A DNA stretch of 31,042 bases from a virus. The stretch is from IMG/VR virus record IMGVR_UViG_3300025889_000592, positions 1-31,042 of that record; one strand, written 5' to 3'. Both the position numbers and the translations under genes were made by a program. The stretch's first letter is position 1. Each line of letters opens with the position of its first letter. Below the pieces are notes generated by a model. The model ran no database searches and was not told the DNA's origin. It worked only from the letters and a program-made list of their open reading frames with translations. Below are positions 2,248-31,026 of the stretch, piece after piece.

Positions 2248-2444
2248 GATCTGACTACAAGAACGCCATGCACTACATTGTGCAACAAGACGTTCTTAGT
2301 GGCAACGGAAAGATCCACTTGATCTCTAGAAACAAGTCTGGAGAGATAGAAATCTGGATAGAAAACACAAGCAGCGAAATTATGCTGTGGAAATCATTTG
2401 GCGCAAACATGCCGATCTCAATTGAGTTCAACATAGACTTCTAA
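2220..2444 (+). CDS. small conserved-type phage protein, 74 aa
   Basis: 74 residues starting MELIRKVSVG, a mostly beta-strand pattern with motifs such as AMHYIVQQ, IHLISRNKSGEIEIWIEN and MLWKSF, and the ending PISIEFNIDF. It has no membrane segment and no cysteine. I recall closely similar short proteins sitting between the lysis genes and the terminase in Bacteroidota phages, always without known function. The gene overlaps the end of the lipoprotein gene by 28 nt in another frame and joins the next gene by TAATG, so it is clearly part of the operon. It is too short and motif-free for a functional call. Confidence 0.75.
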   Translation: MELIRKVSVGSDYKNAMHYIVQQDVLSGNGKIHLISRNKSGEIEIWIENTSSEIMLWKSFGANMPISIEFNIDF

Positions 2445-3016
2445 TGAGATCTCCGTTCTACTTCATTGTAGAACCACTAGACGGCAAGACTTACGACAAC
2501 ACTAGGAAGTTCGGAGACGTTGACTTTGTAATAAGCACATCTCAGGAGGACCACACAGTAACTCAACGACATGCCGTGGTGGTTGCTACTCCATCTGGAT
2601 ACGATGGACCAATAAAAGATGGCGATATAGTAATCGTGCATCACAATGTATTTAGAAAGTATTATGACATGAAGGGACGAGAGAAAGACTCGTTCTCGCT
2701 ACTGAGGCCAGGGACATACTTCTTGGATGATATGCAGTTATATGCGTATAAGCAGGATGGCAAGTGGAACTCAATTGGCCAATACAATTTCCTTAGGCCA
2801 GTAGAGAAGGTCCATGAAGGGTTTCAGTTTGATACGGATAAGTACATACAGCAGGTCGGAGAGATGGTGATTCCAAGTAAGCACATGTCAGACATTGGCA
2901 TCGTAGAGTCTACGAGGGTTGGCTTCAAACAAGACAGCGAGTACGAGTTTCGAATCGACGATGAAATATTGTATCGAGTGGCGGACAATAGAATTGTAAT
3001 TAACTATGACATCTAA
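2444..3016 (+). CDS. 190-aa beta-rich protein, possibly GroES-like co-chaperonin
   Basis: 190 residues, predominantly beta. The core (residues about 40-115) reads HAVVVATPSGYDGPIKDGD, then IVIVHHNVFRKYYDMKG, then a serine-containing segment and YFLDDMQLYAYKQDGKW, ending in a strand with VRPVE-like spacing. The order 'strand, GDxVIV, loop with polar turn, strand ending in an aliphatic/aromatic residue' resembles GroES and the phage T4 gp31 family, which cap GroEL during capsid-protein folding. I have seen proteins of this type called co-chaperonin in phage genomes, but here the match is by eye only. A virion or assembly protein is the alternative. It lies just before the terminase genes and overlaps the next gene by 11 nt. 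Confidence 0.7.
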   Translation: MRSPFYFIVEPLDGKTYDNTRKFGDVDFVISTSQEDHTVTQRHAVVVATPSGYDGPIKDGDIVIVHHNVFRKYYDMKGREKDSFSLLRPGTYFLDDMQLYAYKQDGKWNSIGQYNFLRPVEKVHEGFQFDTDKYIQQVGEMVIPSKHMSDIGIVESTRVGFKQDSEYEFRIDDEILYRVADNRIVINYDI

Positions 3017-13009: not shown

Positions 13010-16000
13010 ATGGCGAAACTAACTAGAGCCTTTAATAAAGGGGTCATGGACAAGGATCTTGACCCAAGATTGGTACAATCTGGCACGATCCGTGATGCAC
13101 TTAACGTAAACATATCTTCGTCTGAAGGATCAGAAGTAGGTGGCGTAGAGAATGAGCTGGGTAACGCCAAGAAGACGGCTATTAACTTCACAACAGACAC
13201 CGCTTATACGTTAGGTTCTATTGCTGTTGAAGAGGTTGGGTGTATCTATTGGTTCGTCAATGTGGATGACGCTGGATCTATCGAGAATTACGTATACGAA
13301 TACAACCAGGACACCAATACAACCACAATGATCCTTGGTGACACAAGGGTCGGAGCTGCTAACGTCTTGAATTTCGATCGAGAGTACCGTATCACCGGTG
13401 TGAACTACATCGATGGTATGTTGTATTGGACTGACGACAAGAATCCTCCTCGCCGTGTAAATATCCAGCGTGGTAAATCTTACGGAGTTAGTACTCCGCT
13501 AGTAGATACATTTACTGCTGATGACATCAACGTAATTGTAGCTCCTCCATTGCACGCTCCAGGAGTATCTCTTGATACTGACCCTGAACTTCCGAACAAT
13601 TTAAAAGATAAGTTCACATACTTTGCTTACAGGTACAAGTATGTTGACGGAGAATATAGCTCATTGTCTCCATTCTCAAACGGCGCATTTAACCCTAGCA
13701 CATTTAGCATCAATGGGGAGACTGGCGTAAACAATGGTATGGAGAACCTGTACAATAGGGCTACCATAACATATAGCACTGGTGGAGACAACGTGACTGA
13801 TATCCAGTTGCTGTATCGCGACTCTGAGTCTACTAATGTGTACGTTATTGAGACGATTAAGAAATCTAGCGTTAATGGAGCTAGCGGTGAGTTTGTATTC
13901 ACTAACAACAAGAAGTACTCTGTGTTGCCCAGTGACCAAGTGACTCGCCTGTTTGACAATGTTCCATTGAAAGCTCAGGCCCAGGAGATCATCGGCGGTC
14001 GTTTGACTTACGGTAACTACGTTCAGTTCTTCGATATGAAGAGAGCTAACGGAGAGGACGTTAAGATGAACTTCGAGGTGGAGCTAGATAGCCAGGTAAT
14101 CACAGCGGCTGTACCATCTGTAAAGTCTAACCGCGACTATGAGGTTGGCATTGTTTATCTGGACGAGTATGGACGTTCAACCCCAGCTCAAACCTGCGAG
14201 AACAACACTATATATGTCAAGCCATCACTGGCAGCGAAGCAGAATAAGATTCGCGTAAAGATTAATCATGAGGCTCCTGAGTTTGCCTCCTACTACAGGT
14301 TTGTAATCAAGGAGTCAAAGGGCCACTACGAAAACATCTTCATCAACTACTTTATTGAGGATGCTGGATTCAATTACTTATTGATTCAGCCGTCTGACGT
14401 AGATAAGATCAAGATTGGTAAGTATCTGTACTTTAAGACCGACGCAAACGGAGCGGTAGCTACGGACGTAAAGGTCAAGGCTACTGAGCTGAAGGTGATT
14501 GCAAAGGACGAGCTCGGCAAGGGATTGCCAGCATTCACTGGGTCCTATCTTAAGGTTACATCTGATAGCGGAATTAAGCTAAACCCAAGCATTATTACCG
14601 AGTTGAAAGCTCAGGGTGATGGTATTAATACAAACTACTCCTATAGGGGATTTGACGATAATGGAGGGATTCGCAGGAAGAAGTGTAAGGACACTACTAT
14701 CGACACCTACATATTTAAGGATGAGAACGGCCAGAATTCTTCGCAGTTTGGAACTGCGTTCGTAGAGAACCCAATCCTTTATCCTCAGGTATCTGGAAGC
14801 ACTGCTGCTGAAGGTGTAATGACTATCGCCAGGAATAATGAGGTTATAAACTCAAACCAGGGTGACGCTCGTTACAACATCGTAATCACCGACATTCTAG
14901 CATCTGGGCCTCAGATGAACTACTACATCACGGGTGACGAGGGTTACATCGAGAGCGCAGATCTAACGATCAACAACACAGCGTCTACCGAGTACGCCAT
15001 TAAAGACAAGAAAGGTAATACCGTATTCTACGTAAAGTTCTCGAACAATAACACTCTAACTACTGGAGATAGGTTTGTTGTCAACGTAAGGACAGCTAAT
15101 AACAAGCACACGTTATCCAGCGCTGGCAAGCACGACCCTGGACACTCTGTAGCGAAAGCTGCGGTAGGAGCTGTTATCGGAGAGGTCCGTGGCGGAGCGA
15201 TTGTTAAGATCAAGGCCAAGAATAGGCATGAAGACCTAGGTGGCATACCAGAACAAATCTTCACGTCCACAAGGACATACAAGAACATCGAAGAGTGGTA
15301 CTGGGAAGACAGGATATACAAGAGGTTGAAAGCTAATATAGCTCGCCTTGGCTCATCAAATATATTTGGCAATAACGCCACGACTACCATCGAGGAGCAA
15401 ATCGCTAACGGAATATGGTTCACTAGGGGTGTTGTGGATAAGGGTATCTACGTCAAGCAAATCAGGAATGCCGAGCAATTGGCGTCATACGGAGATGTTG
15501 TGATGTGTTCTAGGTCTAGCGCTGGAGCTGCCGAGGCTACAGCTGTATTCGATGACTGCGTGCCAAACTTATACACGCTCACAGTAACAGTAACTGCTGC
15601 TGCTAGCCAAGTTGTACTTGAGACTGTTCCAGAGTCAATGATCGATGGTATCTATCGTGAGATCCCTGGCACTTACGCCATTACAGACGGAGCTCACTCT
15701 GGTAGCGTGCAGGACCAGTTCTTCAATAGTGGAGCCAGTATAGCGCAACCAGCTATCAGCGATTTGCAGTTCGAGAACTGCTACGCGTTTGGGAACGGCG
15801 TGGAGTCTATTGCGATTCGCGACGACTTCAACGGAATCAAAATGACACAGAGCCCACGTGTAACTGCTGAGGTAGAAGACTACAAGCAGGAGCGTGTAGG
15901 CAACGGATTGACATATAGCGGAGTATATCGCGCAGACAGCAACGTGAATAAGTTGAACCAATTCAACCTGTCTCTCGCTAACTTTAAGTACCTAGACCAG

Positions 16001-18661
16001 AACTTCGGATCCGTTCAGAAGCTTCATGGCCGCGACACTGATCTGATTGTGTTCCAAGAGAACAAGGTATCAAAGGTGTTGTTCGGTAAGAACCTATTGA
16101 GCGACGCAGCTGGTGGAGGATCGGTTGCTTCCATCCCTCAGGTGCTAGGAACTCAGATCGCCTTTGGTGGTGAGTATGGTATCTCTAGGAACCCTGAGAG
16201 CTTCGCTACCTGGGGCAACATGTTGTACTGGGCTGACACTCGCCGCAACGCCGTGTTGCGTATGGGCATGGACGGCACTACTCCGATCTCTGCTTATGGC
16301 ATGACTGACTACTTCCGCGACTCATTCACTACTACTAAAGGCGAATTGAAACTTGGCGGGTACGATCCATATAACAACATGTACGTACTAACTTCTACAA
16401 ACGACTCTGTAGAGGCTTGCGACATTGAGATCTCCAGGAACTCGATCTTCGTCGAGAAGACCCCTATCGCAGCGATCAAGCTGTTCGCTGTGGAGGGGAA
16501 TGGATCTTGGACCGTATCTAAGGTTAACACTGGTGACGGTACAGACTGGTTGACGCTCGGAACTAGCTCAGGGACTAACACACAGGACGTTTACGGCACT
16601 TTCTCGTCAAATACATCTGGTAACCCCAGGAGCATGACGATCGAGGTTACAGGGTGCTCTGAGACACTAGTATTCTCAATAACCCAAACAGCGTACGACG
16701 AGAAGACTATTCGCGTGTATGTTGTAAACAGTGAAGAGGACTTCGGCAACGTAGCTTCTCAGCAATACTTCTACACCAACTCTCCTGGAGCTGGGGTTAA
16801 GTATGTTGACACCGCGCTGCTTGAAGGTGGCTTGGCTATGTTCACTTCAACTACCGAAAAGGTTGGATTTGACAAGATGCCAATCCCAGGCGACACCGTA
16901 ACTATGAGGGCTTACGACGAGATCGTTGGAATCAACGGAGGCACAGCCTCTCCGTTCATCCCAGGCCTGGGCAACAAGTGTTATTACTATGTCTCTAATA
17001 CTGATTATACTGCTCAAGACTACGATACGGTAATTGCGGCAGCGACTGAAGTCACAATGAGTCTAAGCGCTGGTGACTACGTTGGTTCATTCGTGTACTC
17101 CGCCCCTAGCGATGAAGAGTACTTGTACTTGGTATGGGACTACCGCAACCTAAAAGATTGCTCAGAGACCCAGTCGTACGTCGGGTCAGCTGGCTACACG
17201 CCGATGACTTTCGAGATTGGAAGTGAGACTGGTATTGTCGATGTCGACTATGTATTGACCTCTGGGGACGCCACGATCAACGTGATCTACAACGGATCGA
17301 TTGTAGCTACAACTGGATCTATAGTAGGACCATCTGTTGGGTCGTTGACATTCACGAAGCGACACACTACGCCAACTAGCGCAGTAGTGCAGATCGTAAA
17401 CGACTCCTTGCTGGCAAGCGCCTACGACGTAGATATTACAGTAAACTGCCCAACACTTCAGCCGATCGACATCGATCCGACTAATGGAACTGGAAGCAAC
17501 GTATGTTCTCAGACTCCTGGAACTACGTACTACACCGACGGAGCTACAACTGGAACAGAGGGCGCTAGGATCTACACTGATTCAAACGGAACAACTCCAT
17601 TCAATGGAGGCGACGCTTTCCACCTGATCGATACTAGCGACAATTACGTTGTTGTTAATGCCGATGGATACATTGTGTCTAAGGGATCTTGTAACTGTTC
17701 TGCTGCCTCTGAGCCAACTGGAACTGACGCAAACGTGCAGTTGTACGAAGGTGAAGAGGTTTCTTTCCGCCTGGAAGCAGACGAGACTCCTATCGCATGG
17801 GAGGTTAGCACTCTTGCTTCTCGCTACTTGTTAGAAGGTGGAGATTATGGAGCTGTCTTCAACGGACTAGACCCAGTGACTGCATTGTACAAGAAGGTTG
17901 CTGTGTTCATTGGCGACTCTAAGGAGATTACGTTTGTTGATGGTACCGTAACTAAGGTCCAGGGAGACAGCGGGTCGTTCACCAAGATTGGGCCAGATGC
18001 TCAATACTCTTTGCCTGATGGCTTGTACTTGAACGAGGCAAACGGTGTTATCTCTGGTACTCCAACCAGGATCGGATCATGGAGTGTAGACTTCGTAGCG
18101 ACAAACTGCGTAGGTACAAGTCCTGTGTTCTCAGTTCGTTTTGATGTGATAACAGATGGAGCTGTTCAGTCAGACGTGACTCCGTTCTCTATCGACACCA
18201 CGAACTCTGACGCGAGCTCAGCCTGCGGAATAACTCCAAGCTACGACATCATGTATCATGACGGATACTACACATATCCTGTAATTGGAGACAAGATTTA
18301 CAGTTCATCACTTGCTAACTCTCCATTCAATGGCAACGACTTGTGGTATCTAATGAACAATGGTCAGACTTGCCAAGTCGATAGCACTGGAGTGATTAGC
18401 GCAATCGTTGACTGCGTAGAGACAGCTTACACTGGAGACAACTTTGTGTATGAGGCCAATGCGGTAGACACATGTGCTAGCGGCATCTACTCCTACAGCC
18501 TGTACTATACAGGGACACTAGGTGTGAACCCAGGCAAGTTGTACGACGACGCAGGATTGACTACACTATCACCAGCTGGATGGTACAAGGCACAAGGATC
18601 GCCAGCTGCTGCGTACGAGTGGAATGGAAGTGAGTGGACAGGAAGTGCATACGTTTGTTAA
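13010..18661 (+). CDS. phage stabilization/tail protein with C-terminal BACON-like, He_PIG-like and repeat modules
   Basis: 1883 residues. The N-terminus (FNKGVMDKDLDPRLVQSG, DALNVNISSSEGSEVGGVEN) matches what I know as the stabilization-protein family of crAss-like and P22-type phages, a plug or tail hub that keeps DNA in the head. The following ~1100 residues are mostly beta, propeller-like, with motifs such as INYIDGMLYWTDD and NMLYWADTRRNAVLRMGMDG. Residues about 1150-1230 resemble a BACON domain (SWTVSK, WLTLG, GNPRSMTIEV, FSITQTA). Residues about 1650-1715 resemble a He_PIG Ig-like domain (LPDGLYLNEANGVISGTPT). Cys-bracketed repeats occupy about 1498-1561, 1739-1802 and 1822-1883. The tail half could bind host glycans. 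BACON domains are known from crAssphage and gut Bacteroidota proteins. It starts 1 nt after the previous stop. Confidence 0.85.
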   Translation: MAKLTRAFNKGVMDKDLDPRLVQSGTIRDALNVNISSSEGSEVGGVENELGNAKKTAINFTTDTAYTLGSIAVEEVGCIYWFVNVDDAGSIENYVYEYNQDTNTTTMILGDTRVGAANVLNFDREYRITGVNYIDGMLYWTDDKNPPRRVNIQRGKSYGVSTPLVDTFTADDINVIVAPPLHAPGVSLDTDPELPNNLKDKFTYFAYRYKYVDGEYSSLSPFSNGAFNPSTFSINGETGVNNGMENLYNRATITYSTGGDNVTDIQLLYRDSESTNVYVIETIKKSSVNGASGEFVFTNNKKYSVLPSDQVTRLFDNVPLKAQAQEIIGGRLTYGNYVQFFDMKRANGEDVKMNFEVELDSQVITAAVPSVKSNRDYEVGIVYLDEYGRSTPAQTCENNTIYVKPSLAAKQNKIRVKINHEAPEFASYYRFVIKESKGHYENIFINYFIEDAGFNYLLIQPSDVDKIKIGKYLYFKTDANGAVATDVKVKATELKVIAKDELGKGLPAFTGSYLKVTSDSGIKLNPSIITELKAQGDGINTNYSYRGFDDNGGIRRKKCKDTTIDTYIFKDENGQNSSQFGTAFVENPILYPQVSGSTAAEGVMTIARNNEVINSNQGDARYNIVITDILASGPQMNYYITGDEGYIESADLTINNTASTEYAIKDKKGNTVFYVKFSNNNTLTTGDRFVVNVRTANNKHTLSSAGKHDPGHSVAKAAVGAVIGEVRGGAIVKIKAKNRHEDLGGIPEQIFTSTRTYKNIEEWYWEDRIYKRLKANIARLGSSNIFGNNATTTIEEQIANGIWFTRGVVDKGIYVKQIRNAEQLASYGDVVMCSRSSAGAAEATAVFDDCVPNLYTLTVTVTAAASQVVLETVPESMIDGIYREIPGTYAITDGAHSGSVQDQFFNSGASIAQPAISDLQFENCYAFGNGVESIAIRDDFNGIKMTQSPRVTAEVEDYKQERVGNGLTYSGVYRADSNVNKLNQFNLSLANFKYLDQNFGSVQKLHGRDTDLIVFQENKVSKVLFGKNLLSDAAGGGSVASIPQVLGTQIAFGGEYGISRNPESFATWGNMLYWADTRRNAVLRMGMDGTTPISAYGMTDYFRDSFTTTKGELKLGGYDPYNNMYVLTSTNDSVEACDIEISRNSIFVEKTPIAAIKLFAVEGNGSWTVSKVNTGDGTDWLTLGTSSGTNTQDVYGTFSSNTSGNPRSMTIEVTGCSETLVFSITQTAYDEKTIRVYVVNSEEDFGNVASQQYFYTNSPGAGVKYVDTALLEGGLAMFTSTTEKVGFDKMPIPGDTVTMRAYDEIVGINGGTASPFIPGLGNKCYYYVSNTDYTAQDYDTVIAAATEVTMSLSAGDYVGSFVYSAPSDEEYLYLVWDYRNLKDCSETQSYVGSAGYTPMTFEIGSETGIVDVDYVLTSGDATINVIYNGSIVATTGSIVGPSVGSLTFTKRHTTPTSAVVQIVNDSLLASAYDVDITVNCPTLQPIDIDPTNGTGSNVCSQTPGTTYYTDGATTGTEGARIYTDSNGTTPFNGGDAFHLIDTSDNYVVVNADGYIVSKGSCNCSAASEPTGTDANVQLYEGEEVSFRLEADETPIAWEVSTLASRYLLEGGDYGAVFNGLDPVTALYKKVAVFIGDSKEITFVDGTVTKVQGDSGSFTKIGPDAQYSLPDGLYLNEANGVISGTPTRIGSWSVDFVATNCVGTSPVFSVRFDVITDGAVQSDVTPFSIDTTNSDASSACGITPSYDIMYHDGYYTYPVIGDKIYSSSLANSPFNGNDLWYLMNNGQTCQVDSTGVISAIVDCVETAYTGDNFVYEANAVDTCASGIYSYSLYYTGTLGVNPGKLYDDAGLTTLSPAGWYKAQGSPAAAYEWNGSEWTGSAYVC
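17480..18658 (+). repeat. three Cys-bracketed ~65-residue modules in the stabilization/tail protein
   Basis: Three related modules start and end with cysteine: residues about 1498-1561, 1739-1802 and 1822-1883. Shared features in order are a Tyr-rich strand, a 'G-x-[KR]-[IL]-Y' strand (GARIYTD, GDKIYSS, PGKLYDD), a Pro-Phe-Asn-Gly or Ser-Pro-Ala-Gly turn, an aromatic strand, and a final Gly-containing strand before the last Cys. Copies 1 and 2 are separated by the He_PIG-like domain. The third is C-terminal and more diverged. Confidence 0.7.
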
Positions 18662-21866: not shown

Positions 21867-21899
21867 AACTAATCTTTATCATTAATAACTAATGTACGC

Positions 21900-21924
21900 A
21901 AGCCAGGATTCGTCCTGGCTTTTG
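21900..21924 (+). terminator. terminator hairpin with TTCG loop before the giant gene
   Basis: A 9-bp perfect stem (21900-21908 with 21913-21921) capped by a TTCG loop and followed by T-rich sequence. It lies in the 82-nt gap before the giant gene and runs directly into the promoter box at 21927. Confidence 0.85.
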
Positions 21925-21926
21925 TG

Positions 21927-21934
21927 TATATTTG
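21927..21934 (+). promoter_or_regulatory. -7 promoter box TATATTTG of the giant gene
   Basis: TATATTTG matches TAnnTTTG immediately after the terminator hairpin. The ATG at 21949 is 14 nt further on, so a leader of about 8-10 nt is expected. Its position shows that the in-frame ATG at 21892, upstream of the hairpin, is not the translational start. Confidence 0.75.
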
Positions 21935-21948
21935 TAGTAGTTATAACT

Positions 21949-24900
21949 ATGCCTCAACCTAAGAAGGAACTTTACAATAACCTAAAACAGCAGGGACTGT
22001 TTACGGGTTCATACGAAGCGTTCTCTAATGCTTTCGGATCTGACAAAGGAGCAGCAGCTTTACATGAGTCATTAAAGGGCCAAGGCGTTACGTCTTTAAG
22101 CCAAGAAGATTTCACGAATACATTCTTTGACGCAGAGCAGTTCGACAACTCGTACGCTCTCTCTGCTATGGAGGAGATGGCAAATCCTAGCTTGGTGGAG
22201 GAAGAGGAGCCAAAGACCTACGAGGGAGTTGGGGAAAGTGGATACGTCGGTATAGAGGCTGGCCTTGCTGGGCTGAAGTCCCTAATTAGTCAAATCGACG
22301 AAAATGACGGCAAATTAGTACTTGAGGGTGAAAGTCCAGTAGAGCCTGGAGCCAGAGCAATGGCTGGAGTGGCTCACGTTACAGGTACAGCTGCAAGATT
22401 CCTTTCAGATGTTATTGACGACTATATGCCTGGTGGCATTGATGAAGAGAAGTATAATTCCATAAACAAAATAGCGGACCCAGCAAAAAGAGAACAGGCT
22501 CTTCGTGATGCTCGCCTTGAGGGTGGGAACAATATAATGGGGGCATTGTCTCAGATGCTGTCTAATTACTCGCACGGAGCAAAAATTGCAGAAGCTATCC
22601 TAGCCCCAGAGTACAAAGATGAAAAGTCTATGACAGAGCTAGTAACTAGCGGAGATGTTAGTGGGCTTGCCAAAAAAGTATTAAACGAAGGTGCTCAGAT
22701 TTATACTGAGATGTGGCTTGGTGGACAAATGATTCCAGGAGCTGGAATTTCAGGAGGGCTCGCCAAGATGTCTGGTAAGCAAGCGTTGATAAATATCGCT
22801 GGCCGAGCTGGCGGTGGCGCAGAGGCACTTGGCATTATGACGTACCAAGACTCGTATGATGAGAACCTGAATGCTGGCATGGGTAACGGAATTCAAAACT
22901 TCTCAAACTCAGCAATCAAGGGTTTGGCTGAATATGGTGGAGAATTAGTTTCATTTAAGTTGCTTGACAAGGCAATGGGTGATGCCATGATTGGCGGTTA
23001 TGGGAAGGAATTGGCAACGAACGTAGCAAAAGGACTTGTATCATCATTCGCCCAGGAAGCTGTTGCCGAGGGGGCTACTCAGGTAGTTCAGGATTTGGCA
23101 GACATGATGCTTCAGCCGGAAGGGAAGCGCCCAAGCTTGAGCAGCATGGTAGATCATACTATTGAAGCGATGTTGCTGGGCGGATTTGTTGGTGGGGGCA
23201 TGACAGCAACCCACACTCTGCCAGCTGCGATGCAAAAGACTATTGCCGATAGGTCTATGACTAGAGACGAGAAGAATTTTGCTATATCCACTGTAAACCA
23301 AATCAACCTACTGAACTTTGAACGTCAGGCGTTATTGGACAACGGAGCTAAGCATGATGATGCGGCTGTACTTGAGTTCGATGCAAAGATCGAAAAGGCC
23401 GAGAATAGTCTGAAGGAAGTTATCTCTGTGGCGTACACAAGGATGGAGGATATGTCAGAGAAAGAACTGACGAACTTAGTTCGAGCCAACAGAGAAGTAA
23501 GGCTTGCTAACGCAAGAATAAAGGAATTAAACAGACAGGTCGACGAGTTTGAGATCACTTACGGAGAGCACGAGGAGTTGATGAAAGAGGCTATAGCTCA
23601 ACTTGACGACGCTCAACAAAATGAATCTCAAGCCGTAAATCAGGTTGTAGAAACAAGTAACGAGCGCCAGTTATATCGCAATATCAACGGATACAACAGC
23701 TTGCCTAACAAAGGTAAGAGGGTTGAGTTGATGGACGAGAAGGACTTCGCTGACTTTATTAAGCTCAGAGGCGCTATTGCTGAGATGACCGAGAACGAAG
23801 GCGTTGATGAGGGTGTAGAGGAGTTGCAGATCCAAGCTATCGAAAGAGAACAGGGCCAGCAAGATGAGGTATCTCAAGAGGATATCGACGCAATGGTCGA
23901 CGAAGAGATTACCGCTACTGACGTAGAGGAAGGCGAGACAGCAGAGGAAGCTGCAACGCGTGCAGCTGAAGAAGCTGGCATGGAGCCAACTGGAGAAGTC
24001 ACTGTAGAAGAGACCCCAGAAGGCAAGATGGTGAAGATCGGAACACCAAGGGGAGTTAAGTCATTCACTGTAAAGACCAAAGAAGACGGAACGGCTGTTA
24101 GCGTAACCAATACAGAACTCACCCCAGCCGAAGAGATCCCCGTGGGGCAGACTCAAGGTGGTGGAAAGATGGTTAAGGTAGGAACACCAAAGGGCGTCAA
24201 GTCACTCGCTACTACTACTAGCGAAGAGACTCCTGAAGACACCCAAGAAACCACTATCGATGGCGGATTATTGAGGAATAAGAGTGGCAAGGTGGTTGGT
24301 ATCAATGTCAACTTCCCGGGGGTACAGATACTCCAGAGAGAGATAAACACTCACAATGAGAAATACGGCGGAAGGCTCGGTATATACGGAGCGAAGATGG
24401 TTGACGGCAATCTGCACCTAGAAATGGCTGACAGACAAGGGAAGATCATGTTCGACTTAGTGGTAAAGCCTGACGGCGGTGTGCATTGGGTACATGTTGG
24501 TGGATCTGGCCTTTTAAACCTTGAATATCTAAATGCTCCATTCCTTGGGCTGATAGACGGTATGATGCTCGAAGAGAAGAGGAGGCCAGTACAGGCCGCT
24601 GCTTCTGGGTGGAGGAGTAGGTATACTGAGCGTTTCGGCGAGGAGAATAAGGCAAAGGCTACTAATGTCAACGACAGTAGAATGACCGAAGCTCAAAGGG
24701 AGAGAATCAGGGTTCAGAGAGGTAGCGGCTTGCACATCAAACTAGCTGACATCATTGAAAAAAGCATCAAGAATGGTGTTCGAGGTGGGTCGTTTAGCAT
24801 GCTCGGAAAAAAGGCAACCGCAAAGCCTGGGACTATGACCGTTACATTGACAAGTATAGTTGTAGGTAATGTGAATGATGGCGGAATAACCGACGAGGGA

Positions 24901-27900
24901 AGGTCCGATATGATGCACTTCCTTTCCGAGACTCTCCGAGGAGCTATATATAACAACTTGTCGTATGGCTTCTGGGTGATGGACAACGGAGACATCGCAT
25001 TCGATTTCAATATAGTCCTAGACGAGTCTCAGCGTGTAACGGCACTAGCATTTGCCACCTGGAACAACCAGGAGGCTATATACCACAAGAGGGAGGACGG
25101 AACAGAGGACTTCCCAGAGACCAATATTACCCTCAACGAAAAATTGGATGGGGCTAAGATTTCGTCAAAATCAGCAACCGACCTTGGACGAGCACAGGCT
25201 GTATTGAACTCTGGCCAAACAATTACGGATAGGCTTGTTTTTACCGACGCCATAACAAACAAGACGTGGGAATTCGGAAGGCACACAATCCATAAGGGAA
25301 GATCAGAGAGGACGCGAGCGATCCTTAAAACATTCCATACGCTATTCCCAGATGCGATAGTAAACAATTTCGACACCATTAGCGACGCACAAACTACGTA
25401 CCCAGGAATCCGCAGGGGGCACAATGGGCAGATACAGTCTAATGGGATGGTCATTAATTTGGACGGAACGAAAACCGCTATCCTTACGCCAGAGGTGATT
25501 ATTATTATTAACGAAACCTCTAACGCACGTATGGGTTCCGACTTGGTTACGGCCCACGAGGTATGGCACTCTATTCTTGGTGCTGCGTTCGCGAAGAACA
25601 ATAAACTACTGAAGGCATTTAAGACTGCAATCTCCAATGAGCTACAGGCCGCTGGCTTAACTACGATGGATCAGTACCTTACTGATTTCGCATTCCAGCC
25701 ACACTACAAGAAGACTGGAGCATCGTACGAAGAATATATTGTCGAGTTCGCTGGGTTGTTATCAAAAGGTCTCTCTGGCATGAAGAGAGAAGCACCAAAC
25801 TCATACGCAGCAGCGATGTATGAAATCATCGATAGCGTTATCGCCAAATCAGCCAACTACTTTATCGGGCAGGAGGTATTGAGTCCTAGCGAAGTAAACG
25901 AGAAGAATATCATCTCTTGGATCGCCACCGTTAACGACGCAATGATGAGGGGTGGTGACGTTAGCGTATTGACACAGTACGACCGTAGTGGTGAGATTCC
26001 ATTTGGAGACAATACTAGCATCACAGTCCAGACTAGCTCGTCCGAATCTACAACCATAACTAACGAGAACGAAACTTTCAACCAGTTCGACCCAGAGGTT
26101 GAGGTTGGCTTTGAGGATCCATTCTCAGTCGGAGCTATAGAGGTTATCCCATTCATGGCTGACCGTATGGCTACTGGCACATACACTGGATTGAATCCTG
26201 AGTCAGGAATATCAATACCAATGCAGGGAGGTGTTGGTTGTCCGAATATGAAGGGGTACTTCGGTAAGATTGGATGGTTTGTAGAAGGTGGTTCTATTGC
26301 CACTTCCTTGCAAAAGGGATTGATGCGATTGTTCAACGCTAAAAAACCAGCTTACGGAATGCCAATGTTCATGGGTAAAGAAGCTCACATGAGTAACTTA
26401 ACTTTCGCAATGTGCTTCATGGCTGAGTGTAACTATTTGATCCAGAGCGGACAAAAGACCGAGCAGGAGATTCTTGACGCAATCAACGCAGCTATAGTCG
26501 AAAAAACAATAGGAAAGAAAGACCTATCTACTAAGTGGGGCATAGATCCAAAGACTGGTAGGATCGTAGACAAGAATAAGAACACTGGCGTGAGGGTATG
26601 GGCCAAGGACATGACTCCCGCAAACTCTGTATTTGCTGATGTAGACGGACAGCAGGTTGCTGTTGCCTGGTCTGAAGTTGAGCCTAAGCAAGTACAAAGC
26701 CTTGACGAATGGTTCGATATCATGAGGACGACATTTGATGCCCGTAAGGCATTCTTTGCAGGGCTTTATGGTCCTAAGGATGGGAAGAACCCAGGAGCAG
26801 CAGCTCGCAAGTTGGGCTTGCCTGATGTTGGAAAGATGGTAGAACTTACCACAGACCCACGTTCACAGGGATTGCCAAACGGAACTGCTATCTCTGTTAT
26901 TGAGTTTTTGCCAATGAAGGATAAGAATGGTGAGTACCAGATCGTATTCACTCCAGAGGAACTTAAAGTAGATCCACACTTGAGCTACCAACTCGGTATG
27001 CGTGGTGTGTCAAAGGGATACCTGAAGGAGCCCATGCACATTAAAGGCATGGGTTACGAGTCTGAAGAGCATAAGGCATGGAGTAAGGAAAACTGGAAAG
27101 AAGGAAGATTCTCTGAAGCCCAGGCTACTTCAAACGCCACTCGCAAGGTGACGATGTCTGTTCCTACGATGATTGTAAACTCCAACGAGGTCGAGTACGA
27201 CAGCATGACTCCTGATGAGAAGGCAGATAAATTGAAGTCTAAGGTAGGTGAATTGCTTTTGACTGGCCGTGTAAGCATGGCTGGCTCTGTCGCTATTAAT
27301 AAATTCTTCGACAAAGTTAGGGGATCAGCCGCGCAGAACGCCAACACAAGAGAGGCGATCGCTGAGTTGTTGTCTGATCTGATCGGAAACGTAACCATCA
27401 ATGGGAAGGTAGACTTGACGCAGGATGACGTTATGGAGATAATGTCTCGTGCCGCTCGTATGAACCCTAATGGCCCAGCGTCTATCGCTGCGTTTGAAAA
27501 GTACTTGGTTAGGAAATTAAACCAGGCCTCTAAGCGCACAGCAAGAGAAGCAGCTGAACTTGCAAGGGAACAAGCCAAGGAGGCTAAGGAGCTTACAAAG
27601 TTCAAGGAGGAGATTATTAAAATGTTGAAGCTGAATACCAAGCGAGGAAATATCACGCTTGCTCAGTTGAACACTATACTGAAAAGATTCAACAGGGTTG
27701 ACTTTAACAGCATTGATTCTCTACAGAAGTTTTTCCAGTACGTTACAAAAGTAGCATCAAACGCAGAGTACGCCAATAACTTGGCCGAGGCTCGCACATT
27801 GCAAGCTAAGATCCGCAAGGCTAAGAAGTCGGCTCAAATACAGGCATCAACTAGAGCCATCGCTTCTGCTTTCGCTAAGTTGGACCCACGCAAGGTGACC

Positions 27901-30900
27901 GATTTGGACGAGTACTTGATGCACGCTAAGATGATTGAGGAGGCTATCAGGACTAACCGTTTTGTTGGATTCAACGAGGACGGATCAGCTGCTGTTACTA
28001 TTAAAGACGTATTGCCACACGGCCCAGTGAACGAATTCATTGAAGCCGAGACCGCAGAGCAAGAAGAATTGCGCCGCCAGGAGTTCATGACAAAGTATGG
28101 TGAGCTTATGGCTGATGGTGTAATCGATGAGACTATGACTCTGGCTGAAATGCAGCAGATCGTGACTGAGCTTGAGGCTGACGTTAAGGCTGAGGTCAAC
28201 GAAGCAAAGAGAGCTGCTGTTAAGAAATACTTGACCAAAATGTTGGAGTACCAGAAGAATCGCCTTGACGAGGCAGTGATGACTGGCATCGATCCAGAGA
28301 CTGGTCAGGCTTTCGCTATGACAGATGCTCAGGAGAAATTGTTCAACAAACTCTTCAAGACTGATGGAGCTATCAGCAACATGACCGAGAAGGAGATGTA
28401 CAAGATGCTTGAGAGCATTGACAACTTCTTCGAGAACGGAACTACAGACGGAATCCGTGCATTGGTAGCTGGAGCCGTAGGGCGAGCCAATGGAGAGGCC
28501 TTCAAGATGAAGGTAGCTGAATTGGGATTGTCTTTGTTGTCTGGTGGAAATGGAAAAGGAATGGCAGCTTTGATGGAGATGCAGTTCTCGTCACTACCCA
28601 TCGCTGGATCACGCTTCTTTAATGGAGTTAAAGAATGGAACCAAGTGCAGCGCTTGATGGGATTGGCTCAGTTCACTGAAGGAGCTGTACAAGCTCAGAT
28701 GGAAGCCAAGGCTATACTTGATGAATATATCAAGCAGTTTAATGGAGAAGGGTTCATGACAGCTGAGAACATCGTGGCACGTGGCGTGTTGGCTACACTG
28801 TTGCGTAACGTAATGTCTAGCACAGCTAATCAGAATGTAGAATTTAAAAGGAGGGTCGAGATTGCTAAACAGTCAGCTGAAGTGTCTCTGAAGGACAAGG
28901 ACCCAAGGGTAAAAAAGCAGGCCAAGTTAGCTATGGCTGCCATATCTCAATTGACTGAAGATGTTGATTCTTACGACGAATTCTTGGCGAAGATCGAAGC
29001 TTTGTCTACTGATCCCAACTTCAAGAGAAACGTAGATGCTGTTAAGTTCTGGCAGGAAAAATGGGCAGCTGCCTACGAGAAGGCGGACGCTGTTAGCCGT
29101 GAAGTTTATGACACTATCCTGGACCAGGACGTATCGTACACTCCAGACAGAATGGTTAGAACTGGTAGGATAGAGGCAACTGATATCGATGAAGGTTTCT
29201 TCTCTGGTCAATTCGTTCCCACACAGCAAGCCGGAAACTTGAAAAAGGCCACTAGGCCAAAGGTGTTGCCAAATGGTCGTGCATTAAGTTTCAACTTTGA
29301 TACTAACATGTTCACCGCTATGGAGACAATGTTAGTTGACGTATACACAGCCGAGGCAACTCGCCAGGTTAAAGAGTTCTTGAAGACCGATGGTTGGAAG
29401 AATTCATTTAACGACGACGTTGACTTGACTGTTATGGAAGACAAGATCATCAACTACATGAGAAGGGCTAGAAATATTCCTGACCACAACAGGGCGTACT
29501 CCGCTTCTGATCCAGTTGTAAAGGCAGTGAATAGAGTCGTAAAGATGGCGCATACCGCTCTATTGACGTCTGTGTTCCAGCCACTCAAGCAGGTAATACC
29601 AGTTATGGCAAACACATTTTTGAACGCAAATGGACGAGTACCAGCTGTCATGATGTCGCCTGACGCTATCGAGTGGTTGTCTAAACAACCATACGGAATC
29701 AACTTGCGAGGAGTTCAGTCTACATCCGACTTGATGACGATTAACACCGCATTGCAACAAGAAGCTGGTAATATCTTTGGAAAGGGAGTTGACAAGCTTG
29801 AGAAATACTTGGAATGGAAGATTAAGTATGTTGTAGAGAGCCCTGACGTATCGGTAGCTAAAGCATCTTGGATCAACTACTATCTTGATTTCTTGGCAAA
29901 GAAAGAGGGTGGAGCTGCTGCAAGGTACGCAACCAATACATTCACATTCGACTGGAAAAACCACAAGGTAGACAAAGAGGCCGCTGAGTACGCTCAGGCT
30001 ATGGTCGATCGCCAGCAGAACGTATCTGATACAAAGTTGGCTGGTGAGTTCTTCCAGGGGGGATCAGCATCTACGATCAGGAAGTGGGTTATGCCATTCT
30101 CTACCTTTATCATAAACCAGAAGCAACGTGTATCTGCTGACGCTAATATCTTGGCAAGTAAGACCGCTACTGGAGAAGAAAAGGTTGCTGCTACCACATC
30201 AATGATGGGTGCTCTGGCTGAGATTTTCACTTTCGTGTCTATCAAAGCATTGAGCTTAGCTTCTATGGCTTACCTAGCTGCAAGATGGGCTGGAGACGAC
30301 GAGGAGGAAGCTACTGCTGAGTTCAACAAGAAGCGTGATCAATACATGGGAGATATGTGGAAGGTTATCGGAACAATCTTTACAGAATTGCAACCAACCC
30401 CACCATTACTCGACCCAATCATTAACGAGCATTTGGTTAACAAGGTTGCCAATATGTCTGGATACGAAGGCGACCTTATGTATGTGGACAAGGATGTAAC
30501 GTCTATAGAAGTATTGTTCGGAGGTATGGCGTCTGCATATAATAGATTTGCTGAACCAATGAGAATTACTGCTGAAGCCAAAAGCGGAAAATTTGAGTAC
30601 GAAAACCCATACACCAAAAAGAAGGAATATAAGTACTATCTACCAAAAGACAGGGAGCTGATGCAAGAATTGGCCTGGTCAGCGTGGTCGTCTTGGGGGT
30701 TGACTGAAGAGCCTATACGATTGGCTCAGAAAGCTAGAAAGATCGCACAAATGAGGGCATGGACAGAAAAAGAGTACTTACAGCAAATCGGTCAAGAGTC
30801 TGGAGATTGGAGAGAATACATAGAATACAAGGCAAAGCGGAAAGAGGAAAATAAAGATAAGAGCACAGAAAGAAAAGAAGCAAAAGCCAAGAAACAGGCG

Positions 30901-30921
30901 AAGCGACAAGAAAGAATGTAA
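21949..30921 (+). CDS. giant multidomain internal/polyvalent virion protein with HEXXH peptidase motif
   Basis: 2990 residues, starting MPQPKKELYNN after promoter and terminator; an ATG at 21892 would place the hairpin inside the coding region. Order: two ~23-residue N-terminal repeats; Gly-rich amphipathic helices about 230-430; coiled coil and acidic linker about 480-690; a 14-residue motif repeated at 692-705 and 739-752; an all-beta/alpha region; a zinc-peptidase-like motif H1203-E-V-W-H1207 after a beta strand, with E1261/E1262/E1266 downstream as possible third ligand; a Gly/Cys/aromatic-rich domain about 1390-1720; long helical regions about 1860-2450; and a C-terminal part with MPFSTFIINQKQR and a hydrophobic helix, like the C-terminal 'large polyvalent protein-associated' domains. 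By position it is the T7 gp16 analogue, ejected with DNA; the peptidase may act on the envelope, capsid or host proteins. Domain names are tentative. Confidence 0.85.
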   Translation: MPQPKKELYNNLKQQGLFTGSYEAFSNAFGSDKGAAALHESLKGQGVTSLSQEDFTNTFFDAEQFDNSYALSAMEEMANPSLVEEEEPKTYEGVGESGYVGIEAGLAGLKSLISQIDENDGKLVLEGESPVEPGARAMAGVAHVTGTAARFLSDVIDDYMPGGIDEEKYNSINKIADPAKREQALRDARLEGGNNIMGALSQMLSNYSHGAKIAEAILAPEYKDEKSMTELVTSGDVSGLAKKVLNEGAQIYTEMWLGGQMIPGAGISGGLAKMSGKQALINIAGRAGGGAEALGIMTYQDSYDENLNAGMGNGIQNFSNSAIKGLAEYGGELVSFKLLDKAMGDAMIGGYGKELATNVAKGLVSSFAQEAVAEGATQVVQDLADMMLQPEGKRPSLSSMVDHTIEAMLLGGFVGGGMTATHTLPAAMQKTIADRSMTRDEKNFAISTVNQINLLNFERQALLDNGAKHDDAAVLEFDAKIEKAENSLKEVISVAYTRMEDMSEKELTNLVRANREVRLANARIKELNRQVDEFEITYGEHEELMKEAIAQLDDAQQNESQAVNQVVETSNERQLYRNINGYNSLPNKGKRVELMDEKDFADFIKLRGAIAEMTENEGVDEGVEELQIQAIEREQGQQDEVSQEDIDAMVDEEITATDVEEGETAEEAATRAAEEAGMEPTGEVTVEETPEGKMVKIGTPRGVKSFTVKTKEDGTAVSVTNTELTPAEEIPVGQTQGGGKMVKVGTPKGVKSLATTTSEETPEDTQETTIDGGLLRNKSGKVVGINVNFPGVQILQREINTHNEKYGGRLGIYGAKMVDGNLHLEMADRQGKIMFDLVVKPDGGVHWVHVGGSGLLNLEYLNAPFLGLIDGMMLEEKRRPVQAAASGWRSRYTERFGEENKAKATNVNDSRMTEAQRERIRVQRGSGLHIKLADIIEKSIKNGVRGGSFSMLGKKATAKPGTMTVTLTSIVVGNVNDGGITDEGRSDMMHFLSETLRGAIYNNLSYGFWVMDNGDIAFDFNIVLDESQRVTALAFATWNNQEAIYHKREDGTEDFPETNITLNEKLDGAKISSKSATDLGRAQAVLNSGQTITDRLVFTDAITNKTWEFGRHTIHKGRSERTRAILKTFHTLFPDAIVNNFDTISDAQTTYPGIRRGHNGQIQSNGMVINLDGTKTAILTPEVIIIINETSNARMGSDLVTAHEVWHSILGAAFAKNNKLLKAFKTAISNELQAAGLTTMDQYLTDFAFQPHYKKTGASYEEYIVEFAGLLSKGLSGMKREAPNSYAAAMYEIIDSVIAKSANYFIGQEVLSPSEVNEKNIISWIATVNDAMMRGGDVSVLTQYDRSGEIPFGDNTSITVQTSSSESTTITNENETFNQFDPEVEVGFEDPFSVGAIEVIPFMADRMATGTYTGLNPESGISIPMQGGVGCPNMKGYFGKIGWFVEGGSIATSLQKGLMRLFNAKKPAYGMPMFMGKEAHMSNLTFAMCFMAECNYLIQSGQKTEQEILDAINAAIVEKTIGKKDLSTKWGIDPKTGRIVDKNKNTGVRVWAKDMTPANSVFADVDGQQVAVAWSEVEPKQVQSLDEWFDIMRTTFDARKAFFAGLYGPKDGKNPGAAARKLGLPDVGKMVELTTDPRSQGLPNGTAISVIEFLPMKDKNGEYQIVFTPEELKVDPHLSYQLGMRGVSKGYLKEPMHIKGMGYESEEHKAWSKENWKEGRFSEAQATSNATRKVTMSVPTMIVNSNEVEYDSMTPDEKADKLKSKVGELLLTGRVSMAGSVAINKFFDKVRGSAAQNANTREAIAELLSDLIGNVTINGKVDLTQDDVMEIMSRAARMNPNGPASIAAFEKYLVRKLNQASKRTAREAAELAREQAKEAKELTKFKEEIIKMLKLNTKRGNITLAQLNTILKRFNRVDFNSIDSLQKFFQYVTKVASNAEYANNLAEARTLQAKIRKAKKSAQIQASTRAIASAFAKLDPRKVTDLDEYLMHAKMIEEAIRTNRFVGFNEDGSAAVTIKDVLPHGPVNEFIEAETAEQEELRRQEFMTKYGELMADGVIDETMTLAEMQQIVTELEADVKAEVNEAKRAAVKKYLTKMLEYQKNRLDEAVMTGIDPETGQAFAMTDAQEKLFNKLFKTDGAISNMTEKEMYKMLESIDNFFENGTTDGIRALVAGAVGRANGEAFKMKVAELGLSLLSGGNGKGMAALMEMQFSSLPIAGSRFFNGVKEWNQVQRLMGLAQFTEGAVQAQMEAKAILDEYIKQFNGEGFMTAENIVARGVLATLLRNVMSSTANQNVEFKRRVEIAKQSAEVSLKDKDPRVKKQAKLAMAAISQLTEDVDSYDEFLAKIEALSTDPNFKRNVDAVKFWQEKWAAAYEKADAVSREVYDTILDQDVSYTPDRMVRTGRIEATDIDEGFFSGQFVPTQQAGNLKKATRPKVLPNGRALSFNFDTNMFTAMETMLVDVYTAEATRQVKEFLKTDGWKNSFNDDVDLTVMEDKIINYMRRARNIPDHNRAYSASDPVVKAVNRVVKMAHTALLTSVFQPLKQVIPVMANTFLNANGRVPAVMMSPDAIEWLSKQPYGINLRGVQSTSDLMTINTALQQEAGNIFGKGVDKLEKYLEWKIKYVVESPDVSVAKASWINYYLDFLAKKEGGAAARYATNTFTFDWKNHKVDKEAAEYAQAMVDRQQNVSDTKLAGEFFQGGSASTIRKWVMPFSTFIINQKQRVSADANILASKTATGEEKVAATTSMMGALAEIFTFVSIKALSLASMAYLAARWAGDDEEEATAEFNKKRDQYMGDMWKVIGTIFTELQPTPPLLDPIINEHLVNKVANMSGYEGDLMYVDKDVTSIEVLFGGMASAYNRFAEPMRITAEAKSGKFEYENPYTKKKEYKYYLPKDRELMQELAWSAWSSWGLTEEPIRLAQKARKIAQMRAWTEKEYLQQIGQESGDWREYIEYKAKRKEENKDKSTERKEAKAKKQAKRQERM
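21970..22113 (+). repeat. tandem short helical repeat at the N-terminus of the giant protein
   Basis: Residues about 8-29 (LYNNLKQQGLFTGSYEAFSN, then AF) and about 38-60 (LHESLKGQGVTSLSQEDFTN, then TFF) share the pattern L-x-x-[NS]-L-K-x-Q-G ... S-x-E-x-F-[ST]-N-x-F. The two copies lie about 30 residues apart. Similar units occur at the start of large internal proteins of other Bacteroidota phages, in my recollection. Confidence 0.7.
24022..24204 (+). repeat. 14-residue direct repeat inside the giant protein
   Basis: GKMVKIGTPRGVKS (24022-24063) recurs as GKMVKVGTPKGVKS (24163-24204), 47 residues apart. There are only two substitutions, both conservative. Each copy follows a Pro/Glu/Gly-rich linker, so it may be a repeated binding peptide. 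Confidence 0.85.
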
Positions 30922-30953: not shown

Positions 30954-30954
30954 G

Positions 30955-31026
30955 TAGCTCCACCAGGAATCGAACCTGGATCTGGAGTTTAGGAAACTCT
31001 TATTCTATCCGTTTAACTATGGAGCC
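30955..31026 (-). tRNA. tRNA-Arg, anticodon CCT
   Basis: Read on the - strand, 72 nt form a cloverleaf: acceptor GGCTCCA with TGGAGCT (first pair a G-T wobble) and discriminator A; D arm containing AACGGATAGAA; anticodon loop TTCCTAA with anticodon CCT (30991-30993 on the + strand), four of five stem pairs good and the first an A-C mismatch; and a perfect 5-bp T stem CCAGG/CCTGG around TTCGATT. CCA is not encoded. It reads AGG, a frequent codon in this genome but absent from the capsid gene. It is the only gene on the - strand. It resembles Bacteroidota tRNA-Arg(CCT), so it may be phage-borne or a host tRNA at an integration junction. Confidence 0.9.

What the first reader, a model, noticed from the sequence alone, without database searches (positions are those of the whole stretch)
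25480..25770. Zinc-peptidase motif inside a 2990-residue virion protein
Seen: a strand (ILTPEVIIII) followed by helix AHEVWHSILG (HEXXH at residues 1203-1207) and acidic E1261, E1262 and E1266 about 55-60 residues later. Established: HEXXH metallopeptidases occur in the large polyvalent proteins of phages and conjugative elements. Inference: a peptidase injected with the DNA that could self-process the giant chain, open the envelope, or cleave a host defence protein.
Basis: partly seen in the sequence, partly recalled or inferred. Interest (0 to 1): 0.7.

Follow-up and report, generated by a model that had tools for sequence, protein, structure and literature searches.

The report
Protease module in phage giant protein
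A very large protein of an uncultured aquatic bacterial virus carries what looks like an intact zinc protease tied to an exchangeable partner domain, which would give the virus a cutting tool that it can swap or drop and probably delivers into its host together with its DNA.

Summary
The motif is real and not a chance match. HEXXH (residues 1203-1207 of the 2990-aa reading) sits in a domain related to at least 62 non-redundant domains in giant proteins of related aquatic phages. Profiles built without the window find this domain at 41-52 bits; decoys score at most 6.5. Both histidines, the HEXXH glutamate, Tyr1253, Glu1261 and Glu1262 are invariant; Glu1266 is E or Q. The AlphaFold core shows the zincin layout; the nearest solved folds are lethal-factor and PPEP-type peptidases at modest Z.

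New here: the zincin is coupled, across a linker with a conserved PIGxPTxI-like motif, to exchangeable companion domains. All 61 loci fetched by companion sequence alone have a zincin match in the same protein. Relatives swap the companion beside a conserved zincin or lack the whole cassette. This favours a dispensable, delivered protease-payload module over envelope opening or obligatory processing of the chain. Best mechanism: the zincin acts after delivery, probably cutting the linker to free its companion (inference). A new variant of the polyvalent-protein metallopeptidases described in 2017.

The parts
21949..30921 (+). Giant polyvalent-type protein, 2990 aa (alternative in-frame ATG at 21892 gives 3009 aa)
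   Evidence: last large gene after terminase, portal, capsid and tail genes; hairpin between the two ATGs
25306..25968 (+). Zincin metallopeptidase domain, about residues 1120-1340
   Evidence: profile hits 41.0, 51.9 and 50.4 bits from profiles that do not contain the window; AF2 core pLDDT about 78-89 for the HEXXH-to-glutamate helices
25555..25569 (+). HEXXH (HEVWH, residues 1203-1207): two zinc ligands and the catalytic Glu
   Evidence: H, E, H in 62 of 62 non-redundant relatives
25705..25707 (+). Tyr1253, invariant; placed like the tyrosine of M34 enzymes (that comparison is recalled)
   Evidence: Y in 62 of 62 relatives
25729..25734 (+). Glu1261-Glu1262 on the second helix; probable third zinc ligand
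   Evidence: E and E in 62 of 62 relatives; helix 195-208 of the model covers them
25744..25746 (+). Glu1266, conserved but not invariant
   Evidence: E 58, Q 4 of 62
25999..26022 (+). Linker motif PFGDNTSI (residues 1351-1358), counterpart of PIGxPTxI in relatives; candidate cis cleavage site
   Evidence: aligned by profile; in 35 type-a modules I 30, G 29, P 33, T 28, I 33 of 35, in a stretch with pLDDT about 28-50
26113..27100 (+). Companion domain, type d (D-R-M-x-x-G ... G-G-V ... H-M-S-N ... H-x-S-Y), about residues 1389-1717
   Evidence: profile-profile E 3e-7, 93% with L187, L145 and elemoE; hmmsearch i-E 1e-6; alignment A9
27364..28440 (+). Conserved carrier arm, residues about 1806-2164
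   Evidence: iterated search: 38 proteins of the set, window included, share it

Best explanation
The domain is an intact zincin metallopeptidase of the polyvalent-protein kind, sitting in a giant protein that a Flavobacteriia-type podovirus most likely packs in its virion and ejects with its DNA. It is half of a two-part cassette: the zincin, a flexible linker with a conserved short motif, and a companion domain that differs between phages. Most likely way of working: after ejection and refolding in the host, the zincin binds Zn2+ through H1203, H1207 and E1261 or E1262, uses E1204 as base, and cuts the linker so that the companion payload is freed from the carrier arms. Shown here: domain identity at the level of sequence profile and predicted core fold, conservation of the catalytic residues, coupling to the companion, exchange of the companion, and absence of the cassette in relatives. 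Inferred: zinc binding, proteolysis, virion location in this phage, timing, and the linker as substrate. I hold the zincin identity at about 0.93; the confidence below is for the mechanism.
For: Profile of relatives without the window hits the window domain at 41.0 bits, E 4.2e-13, best decoy 5.3 bits; 51.9 and 50.4 bits after widening, best decoys 6.5 and 5.9. H, E, H, Y, E, E invariant in 62 of 62. AF2 order helix, three strands, HEXXH helix, later Glu helix. Top VIA rows are zincins: lethal factor Z 7.2 (173 aligned, 4.9 A), PPEP-3 Z 7.0 (154, 4.0 A), PPEP-2 6.8, PPEP-1 6.3; PprI 4.5 and SPRTN 3.9 lower. N4 vRNAP residues 2129-2363, the HExxH domain, align with the relative's zincin at Z 4.2. 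Coupling: of 50 loci found by type-a companion alone, 50 have a zincin profile match in the same frame and 46 have HEXXH 153-177 aa upstream; of 11 found by type-c companion, 11 of 11. Swap: elemoE against L260 are 95.6% identical over 1220 aa downstream and 51% over the zincin stretch, with no match across the companion; elemoE against L256 are 73% identical over the zincin stretch, again with no match across the companion. Conserved motif in an otherwise variable, low-confidence linker. LPD23, SprT-like and a sub-threshold ART-PolyVal match stand in the companion's place in L117 and L203. elemoE's zincin matches PHROG 87 'metallo-protease', E 1.6e-4.
Against: No experiment. Foldseek gave no PDB match at E <= 0.001, and VIA Z values are below 8, a range the tool warns about. 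The window itself has no useful Pfam, PHROGs or NCBIfam hit. The window lacks the strand-2 histidine present in 28 of 28 other rows of A6 and 58 of 62 in the wider set, and has insertions, so its activity may differ. Its linker match (PFGDNTSI) is looser than the type-a motif, and other type-d members show it poorly. A conserved linker motif may also be a docking site. N4 vRNAP, which carries such a domain, is packaged unprocessed (PMC5512222, passages read).
Confidence: 0.45

Rival explanations
1. The zincin is a trans-acting effector: it cuts a host protein (defence, cytoskeleton or regulatory), and the exchangeable companion is its targeting or substrate-recognition part.
For: Companion diversified into at least four types beside a constant zincin; the cassette is dispensable; the type-a companion model resembles YTH-type reader folds (Z 5.8, 138 aligned, 3.9 A); the nearest solved folds include secreted effector peptidases.
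Against: The almost fixed zincin-companion spacing and the conserved linker motif are also what cis processing would give; no host target is known; YTH Z values are in the range of chance likeness.
Confidence: 0.35
2. The domain is a catalytically unused zincin fold, kept for packaging or as a spacer, as proposed for the HExxH region of N4 vRNAP that is needed for encapsidation.
For: N4 vRNAP is packaged uncut although its HExxH region is needed for encapsidation (PMC5512222, passages); the N4 domain appears among the structural matches; the window has lost the strand-2 His.
Against: Six catalytic-site residues invariant in 62 of 62 relatives argue for chemistry; giants without any HEXXH exist in the same phage group, so packaging does not need it.
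Confidence: 0.12
3. Virion-maturation or envelope-opening protease: the zincin processes the whole giant chain or breaches the cell envelope during entry.
For: P1 DdrB is processed before packaging, and autoproteolysis by its MPTase was proposed (PMC5512222, passages).
Against: 7 of 8 complete giants from relatives without this zincin have no HEXXH at all; the cassette is missing between conserved arms in L210 against L203; no peptidoglycan-hydrolase family hit in the window giant.
Confidence: 0.06
4. Chance HEXXH in a long coiled protein.
For: Probability 0.0215 for one HEXXH in a shuffled protein of this length and make-up.
Against: Profile matches far above decoys, invariant residues, predicted core fold.
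Confidence: 0.01

Closest known systems
Zincin-like MPTase domains of polyvalent proteins (Iyer et al. 2017, PMC5512222; passages read)
   Same: HEXXH helix, Glu-bearing second helix, helix plus three strands before; inside large multidomain phage proteins among late genes; LPD23, SprT-like and ART-like matches in relatives.
   Different: No family library recognises the window domain; the Asp three residues after HEXXH of their common phage clade is absent; almost obligatory coupling to a C-terminal companion with a conserved linker motif, which I did not see in the passages read.
HExxH domain C1 of phage N4 virion RNA polymerase gp50 (PMC12633501, passages; PDB 9pnr)
   Same: Giant ejected protein, HExxH domain followed by a large C-terminal part; structural row in VIA for a relative's module (Z 4.2, 169 aligned, 6.2 A).
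   Different: The N4 protein is an RNA polymerase; no RNAP family hit in the window giant; no cassette exchange is described in the passages read.
M34-type zincins: lethal-factor fold and Pro-Pro endopeptidases PPEP-1/2/3 (family label recalled)
   Same: Top structural rows for the window model (Z 7.2 to 6.3); HEXXH, then Tyr, then Glu in the same order (Tyr-to-Glu spacing of 7 in short-loop relatives; the M34 spacing is recalled).
   Different: No significant sequence match in PDB; 7 to 12% identity in the rows named; part of a phage giant protein, not a secreted toxin.
Elemovirus (Flavobacterium phage elemoE/F) structural protein gp18
   Same: Homologous zincin and type-d companion in a 3694-aa last gene of the structural module.
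   Different: N-terminal and C-terminal arms not detectably related to the window in the iterated search.

Membership tests
Zincin metallopeptidase fold | HEXXH in a helix, Glu on a following helix | tested here: met
   sequence, model helices 134-150 and 195-208, invariance 62 of 62
Zincin metallopeptidase fold | N-terminal helix and three-stranded sheet before the HEXXH helix | tested here: met
   H56-68, E73-77, E102-106, E117-122 in the AF2 model; sheet confidence only moderate, about 46-79 by block
Zincin metallopeptidase fold | Bound Zn2+ and peptidase activity | not testable with these tools
   needs protein
Polyvalent-protein MPTase (Iyer et al. 2017) | Domain inside a large multidomain protein of a phage, among late genes | tested here: met
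   gene order and family hits
Polyvalent-protein MPTase (Iyer et al. 2017) | Company of other polyvalent domains | tested here: inconclusive
   in relatives only: LPD23 and SprT-like above cut-off, ART-PolyVal below its cut-off, in L117 and L203; none in the window itself
Polyvalent-protein MPTase (Iyer et al. 2017) | His at end of strand 2 and Asp three residues after HEXXH (their common phage clade only) | tested here: not met
   His in 28 of 28 relatives but not in the window; no Asp at that place in the window or in the relatives shown; so not filed in that clade
Polyvalent-protein MPTase (Iyer et al. 2017) | Match to a curated family profile | tested here: not met
   no Pfam family for the domain at E <= 10, none in NCBIfam, none for the giant in PHROGs; the elemoE relative hits PHROG 87 metallo-protease at 1.6e-4
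Peptidase family M34 | Fold match clearly above background and catalytic Tyr plus Glu | tested here: inconclusive
   top rows by VIA but Z 7.2 at most; Foldseek best E 0.32; Tyr1253 invariant
N4-type virion RNA polymerase | RNA polymerase domain in the same chain | tested here: not met
   no RNAP family hit in Pfam, PHROGs or NCBIfam
YTH/EVE-type reader (companion domain) | PUA-like fold with aromatic cage | tested here: inconclusive
   YTH chains fill the rows for the type-a companion at Z 4.9-5.8; the window's type-d companion was not modelled; cage not tested

The most novel reading that the evidence does not exclude
Flavobacteriia phages carry an exchangeable, self-releasing payload cassette inside a giant ejected protein: a constant zincin, a conserved linker cleavage site, and a swapped companion of reader-like fold. 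It would be the phage counterpart of the processing-peptidase plus variable-toxin layout of polymorphic toxins, with the companion acting on or sensing host nucleic acid or defence ligands.
Probability: 0.3. Interest if true: 0.78.

Novelty: new variant of a known kind. Interest (0 to 1): 0.57.

Why it matters
Whether the metallopeptidases of polyvalent phage proteins cut their own chain or host proteins was left open when they were described in 2017 (PMC5512222, passages read). Here nature gives the test material: the same phage group has giants with the zincin, with the zincin and different companions, and without the cassette, plus cultured Elemovirus isolates whose giant has a homologous zincin and a type-d companion. 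A conserved linker motif gives a concrete candidate cleavage site. If the cassette is a delivered, swappable protease-payload unit, it adds a way for phages of aquatic Bacteroidota to modify their hosts in the first minutes of infection.

Tried and rejected
Close-relative search with the window domain or the whole giant in viral contigs found nothing, and tblastn of the giant in phage records found nothing; the relatives came only through capsid and tail genes. Pfam, PHROGs and NCBIfam on the window protein gave nothing useful. No relative in genome contigs with the zincin alignment (weak test, because the confirming query was the divergent window sequence) or with the zincin-companion alignment, so I have no evidence of the module outside phages. 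RNA-polymerase reading rejected (no family hit). Envelope-opening reading weakened by absence in relatives. Companion types a, b and c could not be joined to each other or to d by profile comparison at significance, although motif order looks alike by eye; b against d is the best at 25%, and that d profile includes the window. Foldseek PDB searches of both models had no match at E <= 0.001; absence of other families there means little. The YTH likeness of the type-a companion is a lead only.

Caveats on counts: the 62 domains were collected with a profile seeded on HEXXH domains, so invariance is somewhat favoured; the profile includes elemoE, so its match there is by construction; loci L172-L203 were selected by the zincin; the 25 long records are all those with contigs of 40 kb or more among the 160 loci, 11 of 25 matched, and 3 of those 11 also supplied rows of the query alignment; of the 14 without a match 8 were fetched and 6 were not examined. 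In one search, 100 domains were reduced to 62 by removing near-duplicates, after dropping hits that did not span the core. In one search, L244 and L249 start inside the zincin, L243 has its HEXXH 347 aa upstream, and L219 has its zincin match downstream of the companion. The companion types were assigned by eye from 31 sequences: a 8, b 6, c 7, d 4 (window included), LPD23-containing 3, ART-like 1, others 2. Many loci are near relatives of each other, so counts are not independent.

Full report
What was claimed and what is there. The ORF is 21892-30921 on the + strand, 3009 codons. From the second ATG, 21949, it is 2990 aa, and every residue number in the finding is right. The second start is the likelier one: a terminator-like hairpin lies between the two ATGs at 21900-21921 (mean 0.3 such sites in shuffles). 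A HEXXH turns up by chance in 2.15% of shuffles of this protein, so the motif alone would not be enough.

Where it sits. The window is an uncultured virus record. Terminase, portal and capsid-type genes place it near Caudoviricetes sp. MW202828.1 (69% terminase identity) and then Elemovirus and other Flavobacteriia podoviruses (terminase 44% in Elemovirus). The giant is the last large gene of the structural module, behind terminase (3296), portal (5494), capsid-type protein (9142) and a 1883-aa tail-type protein (13010). In Elemovirus, Callevirus and Baltivirus a giant gene has the same place and is annotated as structural; for phi18:3 gp123 the record says MS/MS. I found no sequence relation between the window giant and the phi18:3 or phi38:1 giants, so virion location is by synteny only.

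A real domain family. No family library knows the window domain. Through capsid and tail genes I fetched 160 related loci. Among 27 long open segments that are not tail, terminase or portal, 12 hold HEXXH, 14 motifs in 43,084 aa; 115 tail, terminase or portal segments hold none in 175,312 aa. A profile of the TVAHE type, made from 12 sequences (elemoE among them, the window not), finds elemoE, elemoF and the window (41.0 bits, E 4.2e-13) and then decoys at 5.3 bits or less. With 33 and 62 sequences the window scores 51.9 and 50.4 bits, decoys at most 6.5. A search with A5 gave 32 more loci. In 62 non-redundant relatives His, Glu, His of HEXXH, Tyr (window 1253) and both Glu of the EE pair (1261, 1262) are invariant; Glu1266 is E in 58 and Q in 4. 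The His at the end of strand 2 is present in 28 of 28 A6 relatives and 58 of 62 of the wider set, but not in the window. The window is therefore a divergent member with an intact HEXXH and EE.

Fold. AlphaFold2 with 29 sequences gives mean pLDDT 54 over 336 residues, but about 78-89 over the HEXXH-to-glutamate helices, and the order helix 56-68, strands 73-77, 102-106 and 117-122, HEXXH helix 134-150, later helix 195-208 with the EE pair. This is the core described for polyvalent-protein MPTases (PMC5512222, passages read). Foldseek had no PDB match at E <= 0.001. VIA put lethal-factor and PPEP-type zincins first: lethal factor Z 7.2 (173 aligned, 4.9 A), PPEP-3 7.0 (154, 4.0 A), PPEP-2 6.8, PPEP-1 6.3, with PprI 4.5 and SPRTN 3.9 further down. 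A second model, of a relative's zincin plus companion with 35 sequences (mean pLDDT 72), again has lethal-factor-type folds first (7.4 to 6.2), with YbeY-type proteins, SPRTN, collagenase and the N4 vRNAP residues 2129-2363 (Z 4.2) lower. All Z are below 8 and should be read with the tool's warning.

A companion. After the zincin the relatives do not continue alike: I saw four sequence types (a, b, c, d), LPD23 plus SprT-like and an ART-PolyVal-like match, and other pieces. The window's own companion, residues about 1389-1717, is type d, with L187, L145 and elemoE (profile comparison E 3e-7, 93%); MW202828 has a type-d match as well. To test coupling without picking by zincin, I searched viral contigs with two companion types alone. 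Of 50 type-a loci all 50 have a zincin profile match in the same frame and 46 have HEXXH 153-177 residues upstream; the other four are L219 (zincin downstream), L243 (347 residues), L244 and L249 (contig starts inside the zincin). Of 11 type-c loci, 11 of 11 have HEXXH 170-171 residues upstream. Types b and d were not searched in this way. The type-a companion model is likened by VIA to YTH domains (best Z 5.8, 138 aligned, 3.9 A), which is a lead only.

Exchange and loss. elemoE and L256 are 73% identical through the zincin stretch and 52% again further down, with no blastp match in the companion; elemoE and L260 are 95.6% identical over 1220 residues downstream, yet have different companions. 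L203 and L210 are 68% and 57% identical on the two sides, but 872 residues with the zincin in L203 stand against 71 in L210. Of 25 long records chosen by capsid or tail gene, 11 have this zincin; of the 14 others 8 were read, and 7 of these 8 complete giants (2118-2887 aa) have no HEXXH, while one (3352 aa) has an HEFGH type. So the module is accessory.

Linker. Between zincin and type-a companion lies a stretch with low predicted confidence (block means of about 28-50) in which one short motif is kept: P/x-I-G-x-P-T-x-I, with I 30, G 29, P 33, T 28, I 33 of 35. The window has PFGDNTSI at that place by profile alignment. A kept motif in a loose linker next to a protease is what a cis cleavage site would look like; a docking site would look alike.

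How it most likely works. Ejected with the DNA (inferred from synteny and from the polyvalent-protein literature), the zincin folds in the host and cuts the linker to free the companion (inferred), the carrier arms having done their work. Chemistry by H1203, H1207, E1261 or E1262 and E1204 is inferred from conservation. The main rival is a trans-acting protease with the companion as its guide. Packaging spacer and envelope opening are less likely, because giants of the same group do without it.

What is known. Iyer et al. 2017 (PMC5512222; abstract in the listing and passages) described such domains, proposed processing in cis or attack on host proteins, and named N4 vRNAP, P1 DdrB and others. 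PMC12633501 (passages) places a HExxH domain at 2124-2375 of N4 gp50. Searches listed no paper whose title or abstract start tells of such a domain in flavobacterial phage giants; the library holds open-licence papers only. PMC7077304 was searched for terms only. Verdict: ordinary in kind (polyvalent-protein zincin), new as a coupled, exchangeable zincin-linker-companion cassette.

Noticed in passing
21949-22128 and relatives' giants: Many giants begin with two tandem copies of a short helical repeat (window YNNLKQQGLFTGSYEAFSNAF and HESLKGQGVTSLSQEDFTNTFF; near-identical copies in L143, L174, L177), with a different repeat family in different phages. It may be a packaging or ejection tag.
   Followed up: partly
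21900-21950: Terminator-like hairpin followed by TATATTTG just upstream of the second ATG of the giant, suggesting separate transcription of the giant.
   Followed up: partly
MW202828.1 giant (L002:741-12320): Nearest named relative's giant is annotated 'reticulocyte binding/rhoptry protein', probably a misannotation; it has two HEFGH motifs (residues 1615 and 2500) and a type-d companion match at 2030-2395.
   Followed up: partly
L117:12630-18137 and L203: Beside the class-I zincin these giants carry a second HEIQH-type motif with LPD23 and SprT-like hits and a sub-threshold ART-PolyVal match.
   Followed up: partly
13010-18661: 1883-aa tail-type protein with an Ig-like (He_PIG) hit and a sub-threshold BACON hit, on a conserved virion structural family.
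   Followed up: no
2444-3016: GroES-like co-chaperonin family hit just before the terminase (phrog_13932); Elemovirus carries GroES and GroEL genes.
   Followed up: no
30954-31026: tRNA-Arg (CCT) on the minus strand right behind the giant gene at the window's end.
   Followed up: no
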